Shown: piece after piece, positions 1 through 34,155 of the stretch
How positions within the stretch are numbered: the stretch's first letter is position 1
How the letters are laid out: every line of letters begins with the position of its first letter
Assembly: GCA_963924555.1 (NCBI GenBank)
Contig: OZ004585.1
Coordinates: forward strand, 8,696,556-8,760,555
Length of the DNA: 64,000 nt
Direction of reading: 5' to 3'
From: Crambe crambe
Taxonomy: Eukaryota; Porifera; Demospongiae; Poecilosclerida; Crambeidae
Notes under the pieces: generated by a model
Databases searched by the model: none
What the model was told of the DNA's origin: nothing
The model's input: only the letters and a program-made list of their open reading frames with translations
Position numbers and translations under genes: made by a program

Positions 1-766
1 TCTTTGTTCCTTTGGAGTAAGCTCAACCTTTTCTTTTTCATTCCTGGACCTGCAGACAGAGTGCAAACACGAGTCAAAGAAAAGTGCCCCCATGTGCCCT
101 ATCCCTATCTCCTTACCTTCTCCAACAGATGCAAGTTGTGATCATCAGTGATAACACAACAGCTATCATAGAGGAAAAGGCGATCACTATTCCTCGAACA
201 ATGAAAGCTTGGAAAGGAAAGCCAGTTTGTTCCTGCTCTTAATTTGGTAATCACAGAGAGATTAGCAGAGTTAACTTACTTGGTTTGTCTTGATACAAGT
301 CTCTATTTCATTGGTTCTGCTATATATCCAGTCATACACGTATTCATGCACCATGACAACGGGGGAACTGGGAATGGCACAGGTGACCCATTCATCATTA
401 GATGAGTCAATCTTGGGAGGAGGAGTGAAATAGAGGATCCAGGCAGAGAGTATTCGATGGAGCATAGCCAGGAGAGATTCAGAAGTATCTTGCAAGGGGG
501 CAGAATATAACATCTCACATGGAGGATCAGGATCAGGAGAGGATGACCAAAACCATCCTCCACTCTCCTGTGCTGTGGCTGCAAAAGCTACAAAAAATCA
601 CATGATTAGTGGGGTCGAGGCAGAGGGATGGATCTTTACAAGTATTTGTTATAATCTGATAACAAATGAAGGTGCTGTAGACTTCTTGGAGCAGACATAA
701 GGTGGTGAGAATCACACACAGCACACACCAACAGCTACTTCTGAGCAAGCCAGACCCCTTACCCAA
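1..766 (-). CDS. Receptor-type membrane protein, N-terminal exons only (paralogue of the 15142-11555 gene); runs off the window
   Basis: Exons in coding order are 766-640, 587-280, 232-117 and 49-1 (partial). The first encodes a Cys-rich hydrophobic signal sequence (core CVLCVILTTLCLLQ). The second is a roughly 100-residue ectodomain with GGWFW near its start and an ETCIKTN end. The third carries one TM segment (GIVIAFSSMIAVVLSLMITT). The fourth starts a basic, charged cytoplasmic tail. Donors (GTAAAG, GTAAGT, GTAAGG) and acceptors agree in phase with the complete paralogue at 15142-11555, so this is the 5' half of the same receptor type. The rest lies beyond position 1. The apparent start codon at 766 and the first few residues come from an inserted hairpin repeat (745-829), not from sequence matching the paralogue's start, so the gene may be a broken copy. 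The ectodomain family is not recognised. Confidence 0.6.
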
Positions 767-3528: not shown

Positions 3529-6500
3529 CTAAATCTCTTCCGTTTTCTTCATGATGTACTTGTGCGCTATCTTGCAAGCTTCACGTTTATTACTGATCGG
3601 ATAGTTAACAATGGCTGCCACAACTTCCTTCCAATCAGAATTTCCATTATCAAAGTAGTACTTCAGACATTTCTTCTTCTTATGAATATCAGGTTGATCA
3701 CTGAATTCCAACTCCTCCATAGTGGCATCGCTGACTTTCAAGGCACCACAAAGGTCCTTCCAATTTCCTATGTTCTTTGTTGATGAGAATAACTCATTGA
3801 AGTCTTTGACTGGATTATTCTGGTCATATGATATCAAAGACTCCAAATCACAGCCTGGATCCTTACTGAAATGAAAGGGAGCTAGCACTGTGTTGGAGGA
3901 AAGAATCAAGATAAGTGAATGACAATTATCAGTTTAAGGGATCATAGCTACTTTGAGTGCATGGAATCAGTTAGCCAGCTTACCAGTTGAAGAATTTAAA
4001 AACATGAATATTCCTATGATTGCTGTCAGTAAGATAATAATACCTGGAAAATTATTATAAGTATTAATGAAGAGGATGTGTTCACATGGATGAAAACCTC
4101 AGGAAGATCTGGACCCTCCCCACCCCCCAGATCTATAGTGGTGGTTTGAGGACCACCTAATGTGGACAGATGGCTCTAATGACAATGTAGTATACTAACT
4201 TTCTGGTTGAAGTCCACTTATGTGTCTTTCTCCTAGCCCTTCAGAGCTGGTAGACTGCATGGATACTTGTAGTCAACACTTAAAAAATCCACCTACAAAC
4301 ACTAACCTTTGGTTCTTGCAGTGGGTTTGTTGCTACTGCTCTTTCTGAGGAGGAATATAAACAAAATGATATGTTGATGTCCCAGGGAGAAATCCATAAT
4401 TTTCTCCGAAATATCCTGAACAGTTGAACTATCTCTGTACTCCCTAAAACTAGCTAGCTATGGGAAGGTGCTCACTTATGTACTTGCAGCTAGGGACCAG
4501 CCTATTTTATGCTGGAATAATTATAAGCATGATACATGTAGGTACTCCCGAGCATTAGTCTCACGTGGCCAGACCCTTTACCAACCGCAGCACGGATGTA
4601 TTACATCATCCACACGCAGTAGGAAGGGTACGGGTCTCTGGTGGCAGCACGTACAGGCTCTCAGTGCAGTGGAATGCAATTTACACCCACGCTCACACCA
4701 CAAAACCATAACGGTAAACTGCGCGCTATCATTATTCATATCTGGCTGCTTAGCTGGAAAGTCTGTGGCCAGTGCCAATGAGAAGGAGACCCTTTTCAAG
4801 TGGCATGGCAAGTGCACTGGAATGCCTCACTGCTCTGATGTCCAGGTTTCCTGAAGCTAATTGCACCAAGTTGCACACTAGATATGCTTGCAGATCTTGC
4901 CTGCAAACATTTCCAGGGTGCACTGCCCATTCTTCCCAAGTTTCAGTAGCCCAGCAAGAATTGCCCACGTGTTTATTGTTATTGGTGCATGTGAGTATTA
5001 TAAATGTGATAATAAAATCACACTCCCATAAGCAGTACACACAAAGTATTGACGTTCACATTCCTGGGGAATTGTAATAATGTGATACTATTTTAGTGTT
5101 GAACTTTGGACCTTTTTGTGTATGTCACCTAGACGTTATGTAAACTGTTACTTTCTATATCATTGGCCAGCTGGCAGCGGGCCCCTGAGTTGTGCTGTCA
5201 TATATATACCGGTTCTGTATGCATATTTTACTTCTCTTAATAATTATCAATTTGATATACTTGGGTGCAGTAGCTAGAGCAATCTGTAGCTGTGAATATA
5301 CCACAGGAATGCAATAAGAGCCTGTACGCACTGACACCAGACCCTTCCTGGTGCATGTGGATGATGTAATACATCCGTGCTGCAGTTGGTAAAGGGTCTG
5401 GCCATGCAAGATTACCCGAGCATCAGGTATAATGCTAGCATAATAGGTGAATTTTCAGGCATATTATTAGCAAATCCAAACGTTAAGGTTAAGGAAGCAA
5501 GTTATCTCATGAACCATATTTATAACCATGTATCATTGGAATGCATGACATCTTGTCAGTGCATTATGTAGCTACAACATGCTTTAGGCTGAGTAAGTGT
5601 GTGTACAAAGACTGAGAAGGATTTTTTCAGTAAGATTATGGGCACAATCTAGAGCATAATGGGGTCAAACAGGCATAATTAAAAGCAAAATGGGTAACTT
5701 TTGGGGGAATTGCTGAAAGGCCAAAAAATTTGCTTACTTGCAGGAGGAATAATTGTAAAAGTACACTCCTTTTCCAGTCCCTTCGTAGACAGTTTCAGAG
5801 ACTCAGATCTAGCAGTGGTGGTGCAAGTGATGTTGATTCTGGGAGGGTAGTCAGGTATTTTTGAAGGCTCTTCATAATTGGTCTCTGGAAAGTCAATTTC
5901 AACCTTTGAAATCTAAACCAGATGAAAAATAAATGGAATATATCATACAATAGCTACATATTAAATGAGCTTACTTCTTGCTTATCCATTATGCACTTGG
6001 TGGTATCCTGAAGAGAAACTGCATCACTTGTTATAGCCAATACATTATAGGTAGTACGGTCTTCAGCTTTCTCTGATATTCCTGAGTATTCTTTAGCGAT
6101 GTTCTTATCACAAAACTACAAGTCAAACAATGAAAATTCACCAACTAAAACAAGTGGGAGGCTTATAAGAAGTCAGCTATAACTACCTATACCTGTGTAT
6201 AAGTTGTGTGATGATGACAAATACAAAATACAGCAGAAAATTTAGCTGTAGCACTCGATGACTGATAGAGTCTTGCAGAATACTGAATTTCACCTATAAT
6301 TATAATAATACAGTATGAATATTTTAAATTTGCTAATAATAATTATACCTTTTATTTTTCCTTTCCTGAAGAATGCCCTCCACCAACTGAAATTTTTAAG
6401 TGCTACAATACCAAATTGACTTTGGATAGTAAATGTTCCCCTAACATCCTCTACCTCCTTGAAGACATAAACTGGATTGGATCCCCTGTACTCTGGATCA

Positions 6501-7095
6501 GAACTAGCTCTCAGGAACACTATATTATTGCAATCTTCTTGGCTTTGGAGTTTAACGGAGTGTTGCATCTTCATCATCAGGGGCTTTTTCAATACTATCT
6601 GTTCACTTGTTTCAATGAGATAGGCTGGACTAGCTGGCTCCATATCTTCAGGTATTTCAAAGGATCCACTAAAGCTTGGCTGAATCAACAGGTCCACTGA
6701 TTCATCAGGTGAGATAGAGCCTTCAGGAATGTCAATACTTATTCCAGCATCACTTTCATGGTCAATCTGCTTTCCTGCACTCGAGATCTTCTCAAGAATT
6801 CTCTGATCTTTGACGAAGACCGCTCCAGGAATTCTTTCATCTCTGTACAGAACTAGACATGCAAGTTGTTGATTGATCGGCTCAATAATTATTAATATTA
6901 CATACGTATCGAAATTAATCTATGCAAGTGCATAGTAAGGATGAAGTAAGCAGTTGTTCTGTCTATTTGTCCATTATGGGACCATCAACATTAGCCTTGT
7001 CCCCAGGCTCTCTTTCGCATGCGCGAGAGCCTGGGGACAAGGCTAGGTCCACACTTACTTGACTGAGACTGTGATTCACCATCATCTGTTAGTGG
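3529..7095 (-). CDS. ZU5 - single TM - Death domain signalling protein (N-terminus not found)
   Basis: Exons are 7095-7059, 6852-6349, 6293-6193, 6115-5975, 5912-5738, 4344-4307, 4254-4200, 4043-3984 and 3887-3529; all phases agree. The second exon is a ZU5 domain (ISIDIPEGSISPDESVDL near its start, WWRAFF near its end). The next three form a second conserved module shared with the 27134-24017 gene. The 60-base exon at 4043-3984 is a hydrophobic helix (ILLTAIIGIFMFL). The last exon is a C-terminal Death domain of about 110 residues (GNWKDLCGAL ... DWKEVVAAI). ZU5 and Death domains normally act in the cytosol in receptor signalling (UNC5, PIDD). A TM between them is odd, so topology is uncertain. 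The upstream exon must end in phase 0; none was found before 9 kb, so the 5' end is missing or very distant. A transposon sits in the 4345-5737 intron. Confidence 0.7.
4556..5414. mobile_element. 859-bp MITE-like TIR element with 9-bp target duplication
   Basis: Long TIRs (left TAGTCTCACGTGGCCAGACC, right inverse TAATCTTGCATGGCCAGACC) continue inward for 70 bp or more through a shared GCACGGATGTATTACATCAT. Direct repeats CCCGAGCAT flank it at 4547-4555 and 5415-5423. There is no transposase ORF. An 8-9 bp duplication suggests a non-autonomous hAT or Mutator-type element (inference). It lies in an intron of the ZU5-TM-Death gene. Confidence 0.8.
6994..7043. mobile_element. 50-bp TA-flanked hairpin MITE
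   Basis: Inverted arms GCCTTGTCCCCAGGCTCTC / GAGAGCCTGGGGACAAGGC around a short loop, flanked by TA on both sides. Same end sequence as the 18584-18704 element. The TA duplication is that of Tc1/mariner-type elements (inference). Confidence 0.7.
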
Positions 7096-11184: not shown

Positions 11185-11554
11185 CCAACCCTAGCGCGCA
11201 TTGCGCTACTATTCTGTGGTGAATTTCATGAATTATTCATAACCGAAGCGCGCCTATAACAGGAAGTGGAGTGCGTTGCCAATCCCTTTCCCTCGTTTAT
11301 CTATGGTGTATCTGTAATAACCACTACTTGGGCCACCAGCCATTAGAATGCTCCTATTCCAGTCTCAACTCTTCCCTCTTCTCCAAGCAATATTTTTATG
11401 TCAGGCACTGATGATATTCAAAATGAGAATGTAGACTCTTAACTGTTATAGTATGAACACTGCTATATAGCTAGCATGCCAATTAATTTTAATAGATGAT
11501 TCAAAATAAAAATATTATAGATACTTCTCATATCTGCAAATACAATAAGCACTC

Positions 11555-14500
11555 TTAGTGTGCACTGTATTCAATTTTTGATGCAATGTCTTCGCGGTTG
11601 ACTAAAGGGTCTCTCAGGGCTGTGCAGAGGCTGGTCCATGATGGTGACTCACTCCCTTTCCCCTTGAACCATTGATCTACAACTTCCTTCACACACTGCT
11701 TCACGTCAGAAGGATTGTTTGTCTTTATGGCATCAATGTCTGAATAAGGCAATCCAAGGGCCTCTGCAAGGTCATCCCATTCCTTTGTTATCCCTTGCAG
11801 TGCTAACCTCACATCACGACGACCTTCATTAAGAAGATATATACCACATGATAATTAAAGGCACACACAGTAATTGACTCACTAGGACCACCCTCCGGAC
11901 AAGATTTGTTTGGTTTATCTGGTCCTGAGGCAGGGCGGACAGAGAATTGGAAGGTCCCAGCTGCAGCCTCAATGTTATCTGATTCAAGAGTATAGCTTTA
12001 AGATGTGCAGTCTGCATTGAGGGAGATATTACACTATTGCTATGATTTAACTCACATTGGACTCCGTCACTTTCTATAGAAATAAGAGACTGAGTACTTC
12101 TTCTTAGCTGAAGATGGAGCATCATAATACAATTATAATACACTCACACAATTATATCCTACCAGCTGCTCAGATGAAGAGTCTTTGGTTACAGATGCAC
12201 GAATCTCTATAAGAGATGAACTTCTTTCTCTGCCTGGTTTAGTTTCATTGCTAACTGAACCTCTTCCATTGATGTGGCTCTCATTTAGTCCCGTTCTGGA
12301 AGAAGACTCACTTCTTGCCCTACGTTTCTCTCTTGATCCTCCTCTGTCACTTTCCTGTGGACTTGCTCTAAAAGAAGACTCACTTCTTGCCCTACGTTTC
12401 TCTCTTGATCCTCCTCTGTCACTTTCCTGTGGACTTGCTCTAAAAGAAGACTCACTTCTTGCCCTACGTTTCTCTCTTGATCCTCCTCTGTTACTTTCCT
12501 GTGGACTTGCACTAGAAGACTCATTTCTTGCCCAACGTTTCTCTCTTGATCCTCCTCTGTCACTTTCCTGTGGACTTGCTCTAGAAGAAGACTCACTTCT
12601 TGCCCAACGTTTCTCTCTTGATTCTCCTCCGTTACTTTCCTGTGGACTTGCTCTAGAAGACTCATTTCTTGAACATTTCCCTCGTGATTCTCCTCTAGCA
12701 AGTCTGACCCTGTATGCACTAGGAAGAGCAAAACTTTTCCCCCTAGGTCTCACTCCATCCTCCATCTGACTTCCCCTAGAATGAGACCAACTACTTCCAT
12801 TGATGTGGCTCTCATTTGGTTTTGTTCCATCATTGCTTGCCAATGATTGATCATTTCTAACAGGAGATACATTTTCCTCTGCTTTATCACCATCCTGTTG
12901 TTTTCTGGAATTACTTCCACTGGAGCTTTCATTTCTATCATCATTCAGAGTCAATTGACCGTTTCTAGCAGGAGACTCACTTCTTGCCCTATGTTTCTCT
13001 CTTGATTCTCCTTTATCAGTAGTAAAGAATTCGTGACCTCTTATCTGAAAATGTATGTATGTCATGTGACTGTCATCAAAGAGCAAAAGAGGAAGGAAGA
13101 ATTTATGATGTACCTTTTGTATGGAGTGTTGCATAAGTGTGTTATTGCTTCTCTTCTTAAAAATGAACTTGAGTATTTTCCGACAACCTTCATCCCTTAC
13201 AATGTTGATGTCTTTCGGACTAGGGACTAATTCTTCCAACTCCTTACCAGTACTCATCTCATAGATCACATGACCTACGGGGAAATGATTCATTGTCAGA
13301 CACATTGCATTATCTTAGCTACAGTCAGTATGAACCCACCAAACATGATGACATCGATGTTCTCAAGACAACCAGTCCTCTCAACGAGCCTATAGAGACG
13401 TGTCCTGTATCCTAGCAACGTGTTCTCATATCCCCCTAGTCGACACACTCCCCCCTCCACGAAGATATTCCCGTTGTGCACATGTCCAAGAGGGGACAAC
13501 TTCAACATGTTCTTATAGTTCTGCTTATACAAATACAACATAGCCTAAGGCAGAAAGAACATCCAGGTAACCAACAGTATGACCTAAATGCTTGACTCAC
13601 ATCTAGGACCTGCTTGCCATACTTGGCCACTTCCTCAGGGGAGAGGGCAATACCACCTCCCACCTTGTACTTCACCGCGCAATCACACACGGGATCTGCC
13701 TATACAATTAAACCTATTTATCTTGCAATCTAGAGCCGGTGATGTGATGACCTTATGCATGATGTCTCTGATTGAACCCCGTTTTCTGAATGGTTGTGTC
13801 ACTACCACCTGTTCCATCATCTCTGCAGCCTTGTCCTCCTTCACCATGTATTTAACATCACTTATCGGCTGCAAAAATTTGTGTTCCAATTTCCTTAAGA
13901 AACTTCTCACATCCTCTATATCGTTCTTAAGATCTATTGTACACTTCTTTGAGACGGGAGTCTGCATAATTATAAACATGATGTTTCTATGGATATTATC
14001 ATCCATGGAAGAGCTAACCGTAGTGATAATATCATTCCCTTGCTTGAACCAATATTTTTGTAGGCGACACCCTATAATAATAATAATAATAATAACAGAT
14101 TCTATTTTGATCTCATTCTACATAAAGTTGTACTTACCACACTCTGGTAGAACTTCAACTTTTTCCTGATTAGGACCTTGAGCAGTATTATCTGTGCCAG
14201 TATCCTCCACCTCAGATTTCACAGCATGGAGAGCAATTCCTATTCCATTTCAGATAACAAATTGTGACACTTTATTATGTGTGCATGTTTACTTCTCTCT
14301 TCCAGTTCCTGTTCGATTCTCTGTTTATCTTTTTGTTGCTTTGCAGTAAGCTCCACCTTTTCATTTCTGGATCTGCAGATAGAGTGCAAATGCGAGTGAG
14401 AGAGGAAGCTGCCCCATGTGCCCTATCCCTATCTTCCTACCTTTTGCACAGCAAGAAACAGATACAAATCGTGATCATCAGTGATAACACAATAACTATC

Positions 14501-15142
14501 ACAGAGGAAAAGGCAATCACTATTCCTCTAACAACGAAAGCTTGGAAAGAAAAGCCAGTTGTTTGTTCCTGCAATAACTATAATGTGGTAGTCACAGAGA
14601 GATTAGTGGATGCATGTGGAGTTAACTTACTCGGTTTGTCTTGATACAAGTCTCTATTTCATTGGTTCTATTGAATATCCAGTCATACACATGTTCATGC
14701 ACCATGGCAACAGGGGAACTGGATGCATCAGTGTGAGGGGGGATGATGTAGGTGAGCCAATCATAGAGGTACAAATGTATCGGAGAATTGGACAAATCGT
14801 TGCCATGAGGATTGAAATAGAGGATCCAAGCAGAGAGTCTTTGATGGAGCACAGTCAGGGGAGAACCAGAAGCATCTTGTGAGGGGGCAGAATATATCAT
14901 CTCACATGGAGGATCAGGAGGAGAGGACTGTGACCAAAACCATCCTCCACTCTGCTGTGCAAAAGCTACAAAAATAATTATCACATGATTAGTGGGGTCA
15001 AGGCAGGGGATGGATCTTTACAAGTAATCTGATAACAAATGAAGGTGCTGTACACTTCTTGGAGCAGACATGAGGTGGTGAGAATCACACACAGCACACA
15101 CAAACAGCTGCAGCACAATACTAAACACCTCCCACAATGCAT
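11555..15142 (-). CDS. Receptor with PXK/Slob-like pseudokinase, Arg/Ser repeats and C-terminal Death domain
   Basis: Exons are 15142-15022, 14965-14631, 14568-14441, 14372-14293, 14239-14138, 14071-13752, 13699-13601, 13544-13340, 13274-13114, 13044-12163, 12107-12056, 11978-11883 and 11823-11555. They sum to 2850 bases, 949 residues. Order: Cys-rich signal peptide; ectodomain about 41-150; TM about 162-182 (VIAFSSVIVIVLSLMITICI); a short tail; kinase-like fold about 256-525 with GSIRDIMHK, LGHVHNGNIFVEGGVCRLGG and VIMFGHVIYEM; six roughly 23-residue repeats of the type SREKRRARSESSFRASPQES; a short Ig-derived exon; Death domain about 862-949 (LALQGITKEWDDLAEALGL). The kinase part resembles PXK/Slowpoke-binding-protein pseudokinases. 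No HRD Asp or DFG is seen (GGYEN in the DFG place), so catalysis is unlikely. If the 12163 donor is not used, the frame stops at 12133 without the Death domain. It may be a ligand-sensing adaptor receptor (inference). Confidence 0.75.
12305..12690 (-). repeat. Coding tandem repeat, about six units of 66-69 bp
   Basis: Lies inside the tenth exon of the receptor-pseudokinase gene. Each unit encodes roughly REKRxARSESSxRASPQESxRGGS, with many RS dipeptides. Units differ by a few substitutions, mostly R/W and D/N, so the repeats diverge but stay in frame. Confidence 0.85.
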
Positions 15143-29057: not shown

Positions 29058-32000
29058 TCAATCCACACATTTACCTCTCCTGATGGTGATGGCTATCTTT
29101 GTGTGGCCAGTTTTTTCGAGTGCTATAGCCAGACTTTCCCAGCTGGGAGGACCACTTGTTTTGATGACGTCACCATCGCCCCTTAACCATGCTTCAACCA
29201 TGTCATCAGGAAGTGTCATTCTCTTTAATTTGGTGAAAGCCAATCCGAGAGCTGTCCCCAATTTTCTCAAATTATCATTGTTCAAGTCTTCTAGTAATGA
29301 CGACACCTGAAAATGGTCAGCTGATCCCAGAGAACTTTGAGTGGCTGAAGTGTACATAGTGTATGTGAGGATAGAGGGAGGGGAGAATTTTTTTACTCTT
29401 TGATTTGTGAGACATTCTATAACTATTACTGTATTGCTAGCTATTGGCTCCACTCTTCCCTGATTTATCCAATAATACTCACCAGCTTCAGGACTGCCAG
29501 CTGTCGTTATGGTAGAAGGATTCACCATTAACTCCAAGGTTCCCTGTCCCTTTCCGACGTCATTCTCACAGCTGATGTGGTAAGTTCCACTATCATCCAC
29601 GATCACTCTACAAAAGGTGATGGTGCCATCTTCTACCTTGAATCGTTTGGTGGCTGCCCCACCTCCTTCCTTGGTTAGAGTATGTCGAGCATCTTCATCT
29701 AATGGAGGGTAGCAGTCCACAGAGAATTGGACAGTGGGTGTGGTCCCAGCAACAGCCACAATGTAATCTGACTCAAGAATATATTTCGGCGAGTCTGCAT
29801 GGAGGGAGGAAAGTGTATCACGTTGATTTATTTGATTAAAAAATAGAAACTCACATTGGACTTGGAGGTTGAATGAAGCATGACCTTTGCCAATGGCATT
29901 GGAGGAGCTGATGACATACTTCCCTGCATCTCTCCTTTTCACTTTTCTGAAGCAGATATTGTTCCCTTGGATGAAGACCTTGTCTAGACGAAAAGGTTGA
30001 CCATCTTCCCTGGATAAGGAGTGTTGGGAATGGTCCCCGAGTGGAGGCTCACATGATACCATCCACTGGATCTCCTTGTCACAGCCTTCCTTCACTCTCA
30101 CTTCAACAGGTAAGAAGTAGACTGGAGGACCTGCAATCAAATACATCAGACATGAACACTCCACATCAATAGAATCATCTACACTGCACTTACTCAGCCC
30201 AAACCAGTACAGCCCACCATCTGGTAAAGGGTAGCTTCCATTCGGACACTTGAGTATGTATTGTTGGCTCCTTGCTTCCACCACCTTATGAATTTGTCTG
30301 CACTTATTGCAAAGTTGACCAAGGCCGTGCTTCATCTTTTTCTCATCGTAATGCAGGCTCTTGGTAGCCTGCTTTATTCCATCCTGAAGTACTGTTCGAA
30401 CTCGGTTGCAGACTGCCTTCTTGGAGAAATCTTCGATTCTCTCAGTAACAGGATCAGGACAGCACCTCACCTCTAGGTGAGTGGTCAGAAACTTGAGGGT
30501 GATGGTGTCTTCATAGATGCCAAACTGGAACGATACCTGGTCACGGGAAATCTTATTGATGTCCAGGTTCCAATTGATCTTCCCCTCTTCTTCGTGAGTG
30601 AGGATGTAATGGACGAGGACCCCAAATGCCCCCTTAGGGCAATGACCACACTCAAACATGAAGGCTAGGGACTGGATGTCTGTCTGCTTCTCCTCCAGGG
30701 TGGACTCTGAGAGGTGGTTCAAGACGCAGGGAATAAAATATTTTTCCACTTCAGCTTGACGATCGTGGAAAGGAGCAACTATGCGCAGTTCCTTCAGGAG
30801 TTCGATCACCTTCTTAGGGGTGAGATTTGAAACACGTGATTCAAAATGAAAGTCTACGAATGAATATACCCCCTTCTGTACTTCTGAATCATCTGCCATG
30901 GTGCCACCTCTCTTGAAGCTATTCACGATCAGATCTGTCACCAGATTGAAGAGGGCTTGTGGTTCTTTGATGATCACGTCTTTGAGGCCCTTTGTGGGGA
31001 AGTAGCGGATTTGTCCGATCCTGCTGTGGAGGAATTGGAGCAGATGATCTACTTCTCCTTCGCTGATTCCATACTGGGAAACAGCTTCAGTGAACTCTTT
31101 GCGGTGAAGAAAAGGCTGACTGGAGTCTTGGAGTTCCAGGCTGGCAAGGAGATAGCTGAGGGGAAATCGGATACAAAATTCTTCACGAGAACGTATGAAC
31201 TGGAGGATACGCGATCGAATATATCCAAAGACGTCACTCTCATGCGTGTTATCGATAGCAAATATCGCTTGTTTCTTATCTGGATAGGCATAAACGACCA
31301 AGTCATCGTACTTGTGCTCCTTGATGAGTGACTTGATCTCGTCATCGATTTCTGCTATCTTCCTGTTGACGACAGCTTCTTTCTTTATCACGTCTTCCAA
31401 CTCCATGGCAGTGGCTTCGTCTTGGACGACTGCAGGTCCACAAACCTCCTTTATGAGGCAGTCTTTGTGGGTCCCTGCTAAGAAGACGTATGGCTTGTGC
31501 TTTGCAATGGAGGTGTCTGTCCTCATGGCATCGATGCTGGATAACGTCTGCAGGAGAGTTTCCCTGATGGTCAGGGATGAGGTGTAGCAGTTGTCCTCAC
31601 TCCCGTCTTCCTTTCGATAACTGATCCTGAAAAAATCAGTCAATTTGACATTCAAAGGGAAGAGAAAGACAAAGATGGCAAGACCAGCTACCAAAAGAGG
31701 GAGCAATTCTTGGAACTCTATCTGGCCACCTGTGTCCGACAGGTACAAAGAAATCCTATTCTCCAGAAATGGACGAATGCTTGTGAATTTTCCTTCTATT
31801 TTCAGGATCTTTCGAACATTGGCCAAAGTGCTTGGTGGTGGTGAATCACGTCGACTGCTATCGCTTCCATTATTGCACTTTGCTGAAGACTTGCTTGGCC
31901 TTTGGGAGTCACCGACACTCTCACCGTCTTCAAACGTAACGAAACACTTCACGCCCATCTGTCGCAGGCAGCTGATGCCGAATTCGACTGTGTTCCAGTC

Positions 32001-34155
32001 CTCATTGTTGCCTATGTTGGCAGCGTGCATGGAGGCTTTGTCGTCAACAACATCCACAGCGATGATGCCATTCATGACACCAGTGGAGGGAGAAGCCTTC
32101 AGCAGCTTTTCTATCTGAGGAAGTTTCAAGAGTCGAGCGATGAGTGTGGATTTTCCCGAACCAGGGAGGCCTACGAACACCAGGTGTGCCAGTAATCGGT
32201 CGATGGATCCACTTCTCTTTATGTGCTTTTCTATTTCCTTAAAGAACTCTTGAATCTCGTCAGACTCAGCAGGTGGAGAGACAGCTATGATAATTAAAGT
32301 ATTATAACCACCCATAAACCTAAACCACCAACTGCAAGTTATGAGCACTTAATAGCCACAACTTACCATTGTCACCAGAAGGAGGAGGGTCGGAGGAGGC
32401 AGAAAGAGGAAGGGAAGGTGCAGGGGGAGTAGCTAAAGGAAATGAATACAAAGATGAAGCATTCAGCAGCCATGACTCTTTCCCTCCACCACTAGTACCA
32501 TATTCAGTTCTAACTTGAAGTACTAACTCATTCCAATGCCAACAATGCTCAAGAATGGACAAAACAGCTTTAAATTTTGGTCAAAATGGGTTATTACACA
32601 CCTGGCACACTCCTTAGACAATGTTAACTGTCTCACAGAGAAAGAGAAAATTTTTCTGAGCAGAATGGTCCTTACTTTAGAACTATAGCACCTTCCCTTC
32701 AAAAGTTATACCCGTTTTTAACATTAATTAATTTCACCTACTTTTAATTAACCACTAATTACTTCCTAAGGGCTATTAATTATATCGCTACTGGGCGAAC
32801 ACCGTTATTTTAGCTCTGGGCTATTATCTATATTTAGAACATGTACTGCTACATTATCTAATTAGTGCTAAGTGGTTGAACATCTCTATACTTACAATCA
32901 AGTTGCCTGAGGGCTAATTCTCGCTTGACTAATTCTTTATCAATAGCAAGAATCCTTTGTTTGTAGTTATTGATCAATGCCTCCCTCCCCTGTACCCTCA
33001 TCTGCAGGAATTGTTTCCTATCTGAAGACAGGGAGGGCTGAGCAAGCTCCCTCTTCAACCCAGCTATCTCCTGCACACATGGAACACACATCAGGTATGG
33101 ACTGGGCCACATGCCACGCCCTCATCACACCACTGCTACACTCATCACTCACCTGTTCCCAGAGCTCTATCACCCTCTGACGGTATGCCTTCACCTGTGA
33201 GGAGTGAGAGAGAGAAGGTGAGACAACCATACAACCAACACACAAAGACAGCCATCATGCACCACAAAAAAAACCACCACACGCACAGCATGTGAGCTAC
33301 GGCTTCCAAACTTGGAGAATGTGTAGAGTAAATCATGCTCTATAAGATCAAGGGGTCCATGAGTCACTATGCCACGCCCACTTCCCTCGGCAGACTCGTG
33401 AGCGAGTACAATGGCCTGAAAAAAATTGAGCAGGGGTCTAGTATGCAAGCCATTTGAGCTGCAAACTCCAAAGGTGGAGAATCTTCGTTATTTTTAATGC
33501 TTAATAGAGTCTAGGGGTGCATGAGTTGATGGACCTCACACACTTCCCTCGGCAGACATGTCAAGGAATTTTGCTGAGTCAGCATATTGCCATAGAAATC
33601 GACAGGGGTCTAGTAGCTGGTAGCAGACATGCCAGATGAGGTGTGCCCATGAAACATTGGGGCACATATGCTGGAAGTAGCTGCTTTAAGGTTGAGTAGT
33701 CCAGCATTCCAACAAACAACCCATCCCTGCATACGAGCACCCCCCATTCTTTATACACTGTTGCTATGTAATGGCCTACTGTTGCTATGGGCCTAAGGTG
33801 CTGGCAGTGACTGTCTAGAGGGTCTTGTTGGAGATACTGGACCAACACAACAACAGCAGCTATTTTCATAACAACTCACCTCCTCTAACTTCTCAATAGT
33901 AGCATACTGGACCAACTGTATGTGAGGAAACAAACCGAGTCACAACAGCCATGTTAGAATAGCAATGGACTAAGCTAGTAGTCTAGCTATAGAGAGAGAC
34001 TTGGGACTAAAGTAACACAACAACATATTACGATTCAATGGCCATTATAGAATGAAATACAGCTGCCTTTAGTCGCGCGCCTACTAGCTATAATCTGCGC
34101 ATGTGAACTAGAATACCATTAATCTTTAGTAACTAACCTCTTCAAATGTCGACAT
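29058..34155 (-). CDS. Coiled-coil - Roc/COR-type GTPase - Ig - Ig - Death domain protein
   Basis: Exons are 34155-34138, 33915-33880, 33194-33153, 33070-32896, 32432-32367, 32284-30194, 30130-29855, 29794-29483 and 29344-29058; 1100 residues, phases consistent. The N-terminal coiled coil (to about residue 90) parallels the 27134-24017 gene. The 2.1-kb exon holds a Ras-of-complex GTPase: P-loop GLPGSGKST, G3-like DTGGQIEFQELLP, G4-like AGTHKD. COR-like sequence (FPLSYLLASLELQD) and a Cys/His patch (CGHCPKG, CNKCRQIH) follow. Next are two Ig domains (RRDAGKYVISSSNAIGKG; DDSGTYHISCENDVGKG), and last a Death domain (LGTALGLAFTKLKR ... PSWESLAIALEKTG). No signal peptide or TM, so the Ig domains should be intracellular. 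Roc-COR proteins with Death domains are known in invertebrates; the Ig insertion is unusual. The role is probably a GTP-switched Death-fold adaptor (inference). Confidence 0.8.
33290..33620. repeat. Intronic tandem duplication, about 150 bp units
   Basis: Two diverged copies, about 33296-33450 and 33456-33615, share GAGCTRC...CTCCAAA, CACTTCCCTCGGCAGAC and CAGGGGTCTAGTA. They lie in the intron between 33880 and 33194. Confidence 0.55.

What the first reader, a model, noticed from the sequence alone, without database searches (positions are those of the whole stretch)
11555..15142. Transmembrane receptor carrying a PXK/Slob-type pseudokinase, RS repeats and a Death domain
The sequence supports 13 phase-consistent exons: signal peptide, novel ectodomain, TM, kinase fold without HRD Asp or DFG, tandem Arg/Ser repeats and a C-terminal Death domain. 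PXK-like pseudokinases are known as cytosolic PX-linked proteins, and Death domains occur in receptor and adaptor apoptosis or immune proteins. I know of no described protein that joins these in one receptor. It could couple an extracellular signal to Death-fold assembly with the pseudokinase as a scaffold (inference).
Basis: partly seen in the sequence, partly recalled or inferred. Interest (0 to 1): 0.8.

Follow-up and report, generated by a model that had tools for sequence, protein, structure and literature searches.

The report
Receptor pseudokinase with captured Death domain
A gene in this animal genome looks like a cell-surface receptor whose inner part is a dead kinase, one of a large cluster of related genes, and it seems to have recently picked up a cell-death signalling domain from a neighbouring gene family; whether cells really make the joined protein still has to be checked with RNA.

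Summary
In detail: a 14-exon GT-AG model (reader: 13) gives 930 aa with signal-peptide-like start, short ectodomain, TM, kinase-like domain without HRD or DFG Asp, RS repeats and Death. But it is no old receptor design. The receptor-pseudokinase part belongs to a family of 43 loci, 41 on the same contig; two others read by eye have signal peptide, Ig and TM. The Death part is a recent capture: window ~12064-11570 is 86-88% DNA-identical, intron included, to the end of ROCO(COR)-Ig-Death genes; the join lies inside exon 12, whose first part matches the closest receptor paralogues, which lack Death. The disputed 12162 donor is supported: both paralogues share that intron. Weak point: the next intron. 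Its inherited acceptor leads to a stop but needs a 44-nt intron (30 others: 51-73 nt); another acceptor with a normal 60-nt intron also loses Death; longer introns or skipping exon 13 keep it. Most likely a receptor scaffold newly wired to ROCO-Ig-Death partners (inference). No RNA evidence; too young to show selection.

The parts
15022..15142 (-). exon 1: start codon, hydrophobic signal-peptide-like N terminus
   Evidence: model and hydropathy; matched in paralogues A and B
14631..14965 (-). exon 2: short ectodomain, no Pfam family
   Evidence: Pfam scan of window:14631-14963 empty at E<=0.1; 62% and 87% identical in A and B
14441..14568 (-). exon 3: transmembrane segment (about residues 162-193)
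   Evidence: hydropathy; 74% and 77% identical in A and B
14293..14372 (-). exon 4: juxtamembrane, basic
14138..14239 (-). exon 5: linker
13114..14071 (-). exons 6-10 (14071-14019, 13961-13752, 13699-13601, 13544-13340, 13274-13114): kinase-like domain without HRD Asp and DFG Asp
13340..13544 (-). exon 9: family motif GHVHNGN / LGGYENTLLGYRTRLY, catalytic-loop and DFG places
12163..13044 (-). exon 11: Arg/Ser-rich repeats
   Evidence: tandem repeat 12300-12671; the RS exons of A and B are open in the corresponding reading
12108..12162 (-). intron 11 with the disputed donor at 12162
   Evidence: donor context, acceptor and following bases align with A and B
12056..12107 (-). exon 12: fusion exon, first part from a receptor RS exon, last part (from about 12064) from a ROCO-Ig-Death gene
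11883..11978 (-). exon 13 as modelled: remnant of the Ig exon, non-inherited acceptor
11555..11823 (-). exon 14: Death domain and stop
   Evidence: acceptor identical in three ROCO-Ig-Death genes
11570..12064 (-). captured segment of ROCO-Ig-Death origin (against L043 the match runs on to 11555)
   Evidence: 88.3% DNA identity over 11933-11570 and 95% over 12063-12024 to L033
11488..11493 (-). ATTAAA, the only one of four polyadenylation-like hexamers found in 12175-11200; 62 nt after the Death stop, inside a dispersed repeat

Best explanation
The locus is a real gene for a single-pass receptor pseudokinase of a tandemly amplified family, whose 3' end was replaced or extended by a roughly 500-bp piece of a ROCO-Ig-Death gene. 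The join inside exon 12 kept the reading frame and brought in ready-made splice sites. The most likely product is a small extracellular domain, one membrane span, a catalytically dead PXK/Slob-like scaffold, a charged RS linker and a Death domain close to that of the ROCO-Ig-Death proteins. Inferred mechanism: ligand binding or clustering brings the Death tails together, and they seed or block homotypic Death assembly with the ROCO-Ig-Death proteins. Shown: gene structure, family, origin of the Death piece. Inferred: transcription through Death, topology, signalling role.
For: 14 exons, all GT-AG, one frame. Two close paralogues with the same exon order. Pairwise dN/dS in the kinase exons 0.39 (A) and 0.43 (B). 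Fusion exon with both parent families found. Intron 11 shared with A and B. Death exon intact, above the Pfam cut-off, aligned without indel to 11 other copies at 78.6-92.9% aa identity. Death acceptor and exon 13 donor inherited from the ROCO gene. Three acceptors (introns of 77, 95 and 137 nt) and skipping exon 13 keep Death in frame. The inherited acceptor would need a 44-nt intron; 30 other introns measured run 51-73 nt. The one polyadenylation-like hexamer found lies beyond the Death stop.
Against: No RNA data. The inherited exon-13 acceptor gives a stop after 813 residues; the AG before 11995 gives an intron of ordinary length (60 nt), loses the frame and ends after 851 residues without Death; the Death-keeping introns are longer than the 30 measured, though a first intron of roughly 870 nt in paralogue B (gap between matches) shows that longer ones occur. 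Retaining intron 11 stops after 801 residues. The hexamer evidence is weak: the same scan found no AATAAA or ATTAAA after A's stop or after L033's Death exon. No other family member was found with Death: no Death match in the fetched loci of the 32 other members read, apart from 16 residues near A. Two private nonsynonymous and no private synonymous changes, and dN/dS 0.94 against the nearest copy, so constraint since the capture is not shown. Hydropathy is not a topology test.
Confidence: 0.52

Rival explanations
1. The receptor pseudokinase gene is real, but its protein ends before Death: by the inherited exon-13 acceptor (813 residues), by the acceptor before 11995 (851 residues), or by reading through the 12162 donor (801 residues). 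The Death piece is then 3' UTR or a fossil.
For: The stops are there, and the acceptor before 11995 makes an intron of ordinary length, 60 nt. Both close paralogues end after the RS exon in my reading. No selection signal on the Death exon since the capture.
Against: The 44-nt intron of the inherited acceptor is shorter than all 30 others measured. The AG before 11995 follows AAA, with a poor pyrimidine tract by eye. The 12162 intron is shared with A and B. The Death frame is intact.
Confidence: 0.38
2. The Death exon belongs to a separate, degenerate ROCO-Ig-Death gene copy that happens to lie downstream of the receptor.
For: The segment is of ROCO-Ig-Death origin. Scrambled pieces of that family lie elsewhere in the window (19865-19263), and a long ROCO-Ig frame at 32303-29514.
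Against: The L044 protein finds no ROCO part between the receptor and Death; ROCO homology starts inside exon 12, 21 nt after the receptor match ends. I see no start for a separate gene there.
Confidence: 0.07
3. The chimaeric join is an assembly artefact.
For: Tandem, repeat-rich region; no raw reads available here.
Against: The join is sharp and keeps the coding phase, and the target differs from the other copies on both sides of it. The contig is 9.17 Mb long.
Confidence: 0.03

Closest known systems
PXK / Slob pseudokinase family
   Different: Some Slob-class kinase-like proteins carry an N-terminal PX domain (passages and table of PMC2754085); that PXK has no membrane span is recalled. Here signal peptide, ectodomain and TM stand in that place; no PX in the protein. 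The DFG Asp is also lost here (PXK keeps an Asp there in the recalled segment).
IRAK2/IRAK3-type Death plus pseudokinase proteins
   Same: A Death domain and a dead kinase in one protein (Death tethered to kinase-like non-kinases is noted in PMC2754085, passages; that these are IRAKs is recalled).
   Different: IRAKs are cytosolic with Death at the N terminus (recalled); here Death is C-terminal in a predicted membrane receptor, and the kinase is of another family.
Death receptors (TNFR1, Fas, p75)
   Same: Type I receptor with a C-terminal cytosolic Death domain (recalled for these receptors; here predicted).
   Different: No Pfam family, so no TNFR-type repeats, in the ectodomain exon; a pseudokinase and RS repeats lie in between.
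ROCO(COR-A)-Ig-Death genes of the same genome (L033, L042, L043, L044)
   Same: Death exon, its upstream intron and an Ig remnant: 86-88% DNA identity.
   Different: These encode a P-loop/COR-A, Ig and Death protein with no Pfam kinase match (L033 and L044 scanned; L042 and L043 known by similarity to L044).

Membership tests
PXK/Slob pseudokinase family | protein-kinase fold | tested here: met
   A3 profile against PDB chains, best E 1.2e-5, 215 distinct sequences at E<=1; 7 of 14 members match PF00069 and 5 of 14 PF07714 at E<=1, best 1.2e-5. By sequence only; no structure could be predicted.
PXK/Slob pseudokinase family | catalytic HRD Asp absent | tested here: met
   No Asp at that place in 33 of 33 rows. 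The place is His against JAK2 and falls in a gap against the LysM kinase.
PXK/Slob pseudokinase family | closer to PXK than to other kinases | tested here: inconclusive
   105 bits against 28 bits, but the PXK letters were recalled, not fetched
PXK/Slob pseudokinase family | N-terminal PX domain | tested here: not met
   no PX in the 930-aa scan; none of 30 PX matches in the genome lies on C8
Death superfamily | PF00531 over the curated cut-off | tested here: met
   33.4 bits, cut-off 22.6
Type I membrane receptor | signal peptide and one membrane span | tested here: inconclusive
   hydropathy only; exons 1 and 3 matched in A and B
TNFR-type Death receptor | cysteine-rich ectodomain | tested here: not met
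   Pfam scan of exon 2 empty at E<=0.1
ROCO-Ig-Death gene family | Roc/COR P-loop part present | tested here: not met
   no COR-A or P-loop match in the 930 aa; only the 3' end is shared
Death-fold signalling receptor | homotypic Death assembly on ligand binding | not testable with these tools
   needs protein experiments

The most novel reading that the evidence does not exclude
A tandem-amplified array of about 40 membrane receptor pseudokinases of PXK/Slob type with varied ectodomains (Ig in some) acts as an innate recognition repertoire, and one member has just been rewired by exon fusion to a ROCO-Ig-Death network by capturing that network's own Death domain: a receptor-signalling link caught at birth.
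Probability: 0.3. Interest if true: 0.82.

Novelty: new variant of a known kind. Interest (0 to 1): 0.6.

Why it matters
If the transcript is real, this is a young, traceable case of how a receptor gains a Death tail, with both parent families still present on the same contig, so the step can be tested directly. Apart from Death, a receptor family built on PXK/Slob-like pseudokinases would be a new use of a kinase fold known to me otherwise as cytosolic and PX-linked, and the array layout resembles immune or self-recognition gene clusters (inference). I found no description of either in the listings of ten searches, which cover only open-licence papers.

Tried and rejected
Rejected: that the layout is an old conserved receptor type. 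A direct search of the fetched receptor loci with the whole protein found no Death domain in them, except 16 Death-like residues about 2.7 kb beyond paralogue A; and no Death match listed or 23 lies within 10 kb of another of the 43 loci. Those two lists are capped (150 of 965 and 150 of 656 candidates scored), and 9 of the 43 loci were not fetched, so a weak or distant Death could have been missed. Rejected: that C1:1098023 is a normal PXK gene: it is a broken copy. No canonical PXK was recognised in this genome; weak evidence of absence, as no verified PXK was at hand. Uninformative: the promoter and terminator scan (bacterial models), the inverted-repeat scan (two imperfect pairs), an alignment at the end of exon 11. 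Not possible: structure prediction, alignment search of this genome, more than small pieces of genome DNA.

Full report
WHAT IS THERE. On the minus strand from 15142 to 11555 I find 14 exons, each intron with GT and AG, lengths 52 to 77 nt, joined in one frame to 930 residues (one search was a first try with wrong offsets). Residues 1-32 hold a hydrophobic, signal-peptide-like stretch. Exon 2 is a short ectodomain with no Pfam family. Residues about 162-193 form a strong membrane span with a basic stop. Exons 6-10 (residues 256-498) are kinase-like, exon 11 is RS-rich with a 72-nt tandem unit, and exon 14 holds the Death domain (33.4 bits, cut-off 22.6; nearest solved Death sequence CRADD, E 3.2e-5).

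THE KINASE PART. A single-sequence Pfam scan finds no kinase over cut-off, and phmmer of the single sequence against the PDB finds nothing at E<=1. A profile of 14 family members does hit solved kinases (best E 1.2e-5, then JAK2 1.8e-5; 215 distinct sequences at E<=1). Against JAK2 the HRD Asp falls on the first His of GHVHNGN, the catalytic-loop Asn is kept and the DFG Asp falls on the second Gly of LGGY; against the LysM kinase the HRD place falls in a gap. In 33 rows read from the fetched loci and the window none has Asp at the HRD place. At the DFG place 31 have Gly, one (L047_4428) has Asp and one is not covered. So loss of the catalytic residues is a family trait. That is a lead, not a membership test, and a PX domain is absent.

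THE FAMILY. Searching the genome with a C-lobe piece gives, by my count of the exon-9 rows, 43 loci: 41 on C8, one on C20 and one broken copy on C1. Of the 41 on C8, 37 lie at 8.86-9.07 Mb, two at 8.00 Mb, and the target and paralogue A at 8.69-8.71 Mb. 33 of the 43 were read and the C1 copy; nine were not fetched. Some rows carry stops, so not all need be intact genes. One search looked upstream of 14 of them; I judged a membrane span likely by eye in 6 of the 14, and in the rest none was evident or the output was cut. Two of these, read by eye, have a signal peptide, an Ig domain (L036: I-set 29.2 bits, over its cut-off of 23.7; L037: Ig_3 24.0 bits, under its cut-off of 30, and I-set 20.8, under 23.7) and a TM. 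The target's ectodomain was matched only in paralogues A and B (E<=0.001). Pairwise dN/dS between the target and A or B is 0.39 and 0.43 in the kinase exons, 0.63 and 0.45 in exons 1-2, and 0.48 and 0.33 in exons 3-5. One match of A in exon 5 contains a stop, so A's model there is unsure.

THE DEATH PART IS CAPTURED. Window 11933-11570 is 88.3% identical in DNA to L033 (C8:8643-8653 kb), including the intron 11882-11824, and 12063-12024 is 95% identical; L042 and L044 match at 86-87% over the same stretch, and L043 at 88% over 11832-11555. Of these genes I scanned L033 and L044: COR-A 36.7 bits in L033 (cut-off 35.3) and 31.6 in L044 (just under); I-set over cut-off in both; Death over cut-off in L044 (L033's Death exon lies outside the frame scanned and was found by similarity). 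L042 and L043 are known by similarity to L044. Upstream, 12172-12084 matches the intron and RS-exon start of paralogue B at 69% (weak on its own, E 8e-4; blastn gave no such match for A), and a three-way alignment shows the same bases around the donor and acceptor in A and B. So receptor homology and ROCO homology meet inside exon 12, 21 nt apart in the blastn matches. Exon 12 is a fusion exon: acceptor from the receptor, donor from the ROCO gene. Paralogues A and B end after their RS exon in my reading, without a Death domain. A dispersed repeat starts close to the other end of the captured piece: 36 of 40 listed places match window 11531-11379 or part of it at 69-95%, two of them from 11567 on, so the repeat may hold the stop codon and may have had a part in the capture (inference).

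IS DEATH IN THE PROTEIN? For: the donor at 12162 is the boundary of an intron found in A (67 nt) and B (62 nt). The Death acceptor and the exon 13 donor are inherited. Frame is kept with acceptors giving first exon base 11978, 11960 or 11918 (introns of 77, 95, 137 nt), or by skipping exon 13. Against: the acceptor inherited from the ROCO gene (first base 12011) gives a stop after 813 residues, and the AG before 11995 gives an ordinary 60-nt intron, loses the frame and ends after 851 residues without Death. In three ROCO genes the inherited intron is 62-63 nt; here it is shortened to 44 nt. I measured 30 other introns: 12 in the target (52-69 nt), 6 each in A and B (51-73 nt, of about 11 each) and 6 in three ROCO genes (57-64 nt). 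So the inherited site looks too close, but the Death-keeping introns are longer than those 30; a gap of about 870 nt between the first two exon matches of B shows that longer introns occur. The one polyadenylation-like hexamer between 12175 and 11200 is ATTAAA at 11493, after the Death stop, but the same scan found no AATAAA or ATTAAA after A's stop or L033's Death exon, so this is weak.

AGE AND SELECTION. I aligned 11 of the 13 best other Death copies (two were not fetched; one of the 11, L054, has a stop): 78.6-92.9% protein identity, no indel. dS to the nearest copy, L033, is 0.056 with dN 0.053 (ratio 0.94); against the other ten the ratio is 0.16-0.41. dS between target and receptor paralogues is 0.17-0.33. 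The capture thus looks younger than the receptor duplications, unless gene conversion has confused the dates. The target has two private nonsynonymous and no private synonymous changes, too few to show or deny constraint since the capture.

HOW IT PROBABLY WORKS (inference). A dead kinase in a receptor can act as a scaffold or conformational switch. A Death tail close to that of the ROCO-Ig-Death proteins should meet those proteins by homotypic contact, so ligand-driven clustering could seed their assembly, or the receptor could act as a decoy. The PX-Slob link and the Death-plus-dead-kinase combination are noted for other proteins in PMC2754085 (passages seen). The sponge Amphimedon is reported to have 357 proteins of one TRADD-N clade, many with Death-type domains in unusual architectures (PMC8195603, passages seen). 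Both make a domain capture plausible; the passages I saw do not describe this gene.

LITERATURE. Ten searches gave, in the titles and abstract starts listed, no receptor with a PXK/Slob pseudokinase and no such protein with a Death domain. Of PMC8195603, PMC8662651 and PMC2754085 I saw passages only. The library holds open-licence papers only, and two papers I wanted were not held.

Noticed in passing
window 29058-32348 (-): Open frame of 1096 aa, ROCO (COR-A 33.1 bits, just under its cut-off of 35.3) with I-set Ig, 87% identical over 32303-29514 to L044 of the Death-donor family, without a Death match in this frame.
   Followed up: partly
window 19865-19263 (-): Scrambled Ig and Death fragments of the ROCO-Ig-Death family; the Death piece (19757-19662) covers only its first 32 residues.
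   Followed up: partly
window 1-748 (-): 5' part of paralogue A of the receptor pseudokinase, which continues outside the window to C8:8695374.
   Followed up: yes
window 11567-11379 and 11308-11200: Dispersed repeat directly after the captured Death segment (36 other listed places at 69-95%), and a stretch 96-100% identical to three places on C5 and C20, probably a mobile-element end.
   Followed up: partly
L047 about 4428 (-) (C8:8949.4 kb): One family member has Asp at the DFG place (LGDYEN) while lacking the HRD Asp.
   Followed up: no
window 6290-6919 (-): 209-aa open frame with a weak ZU5 match (16.4 bits, cut-off 21); ZU5 often accompanies Death domains (recalled).
   Followed up: no
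L029:3975-3928 (-): 16-residue Death-like match (81%) about 2.7 kb beyond paralogue A's stop, perhaps another Death remnant.
   Followed up: no
window 14631-14965 (-), residues about 74-142: The ectodomain seems to hold three loose repeats of a serine-proline plus tryptophan pattern; seen by eye only.
   Followed up: no
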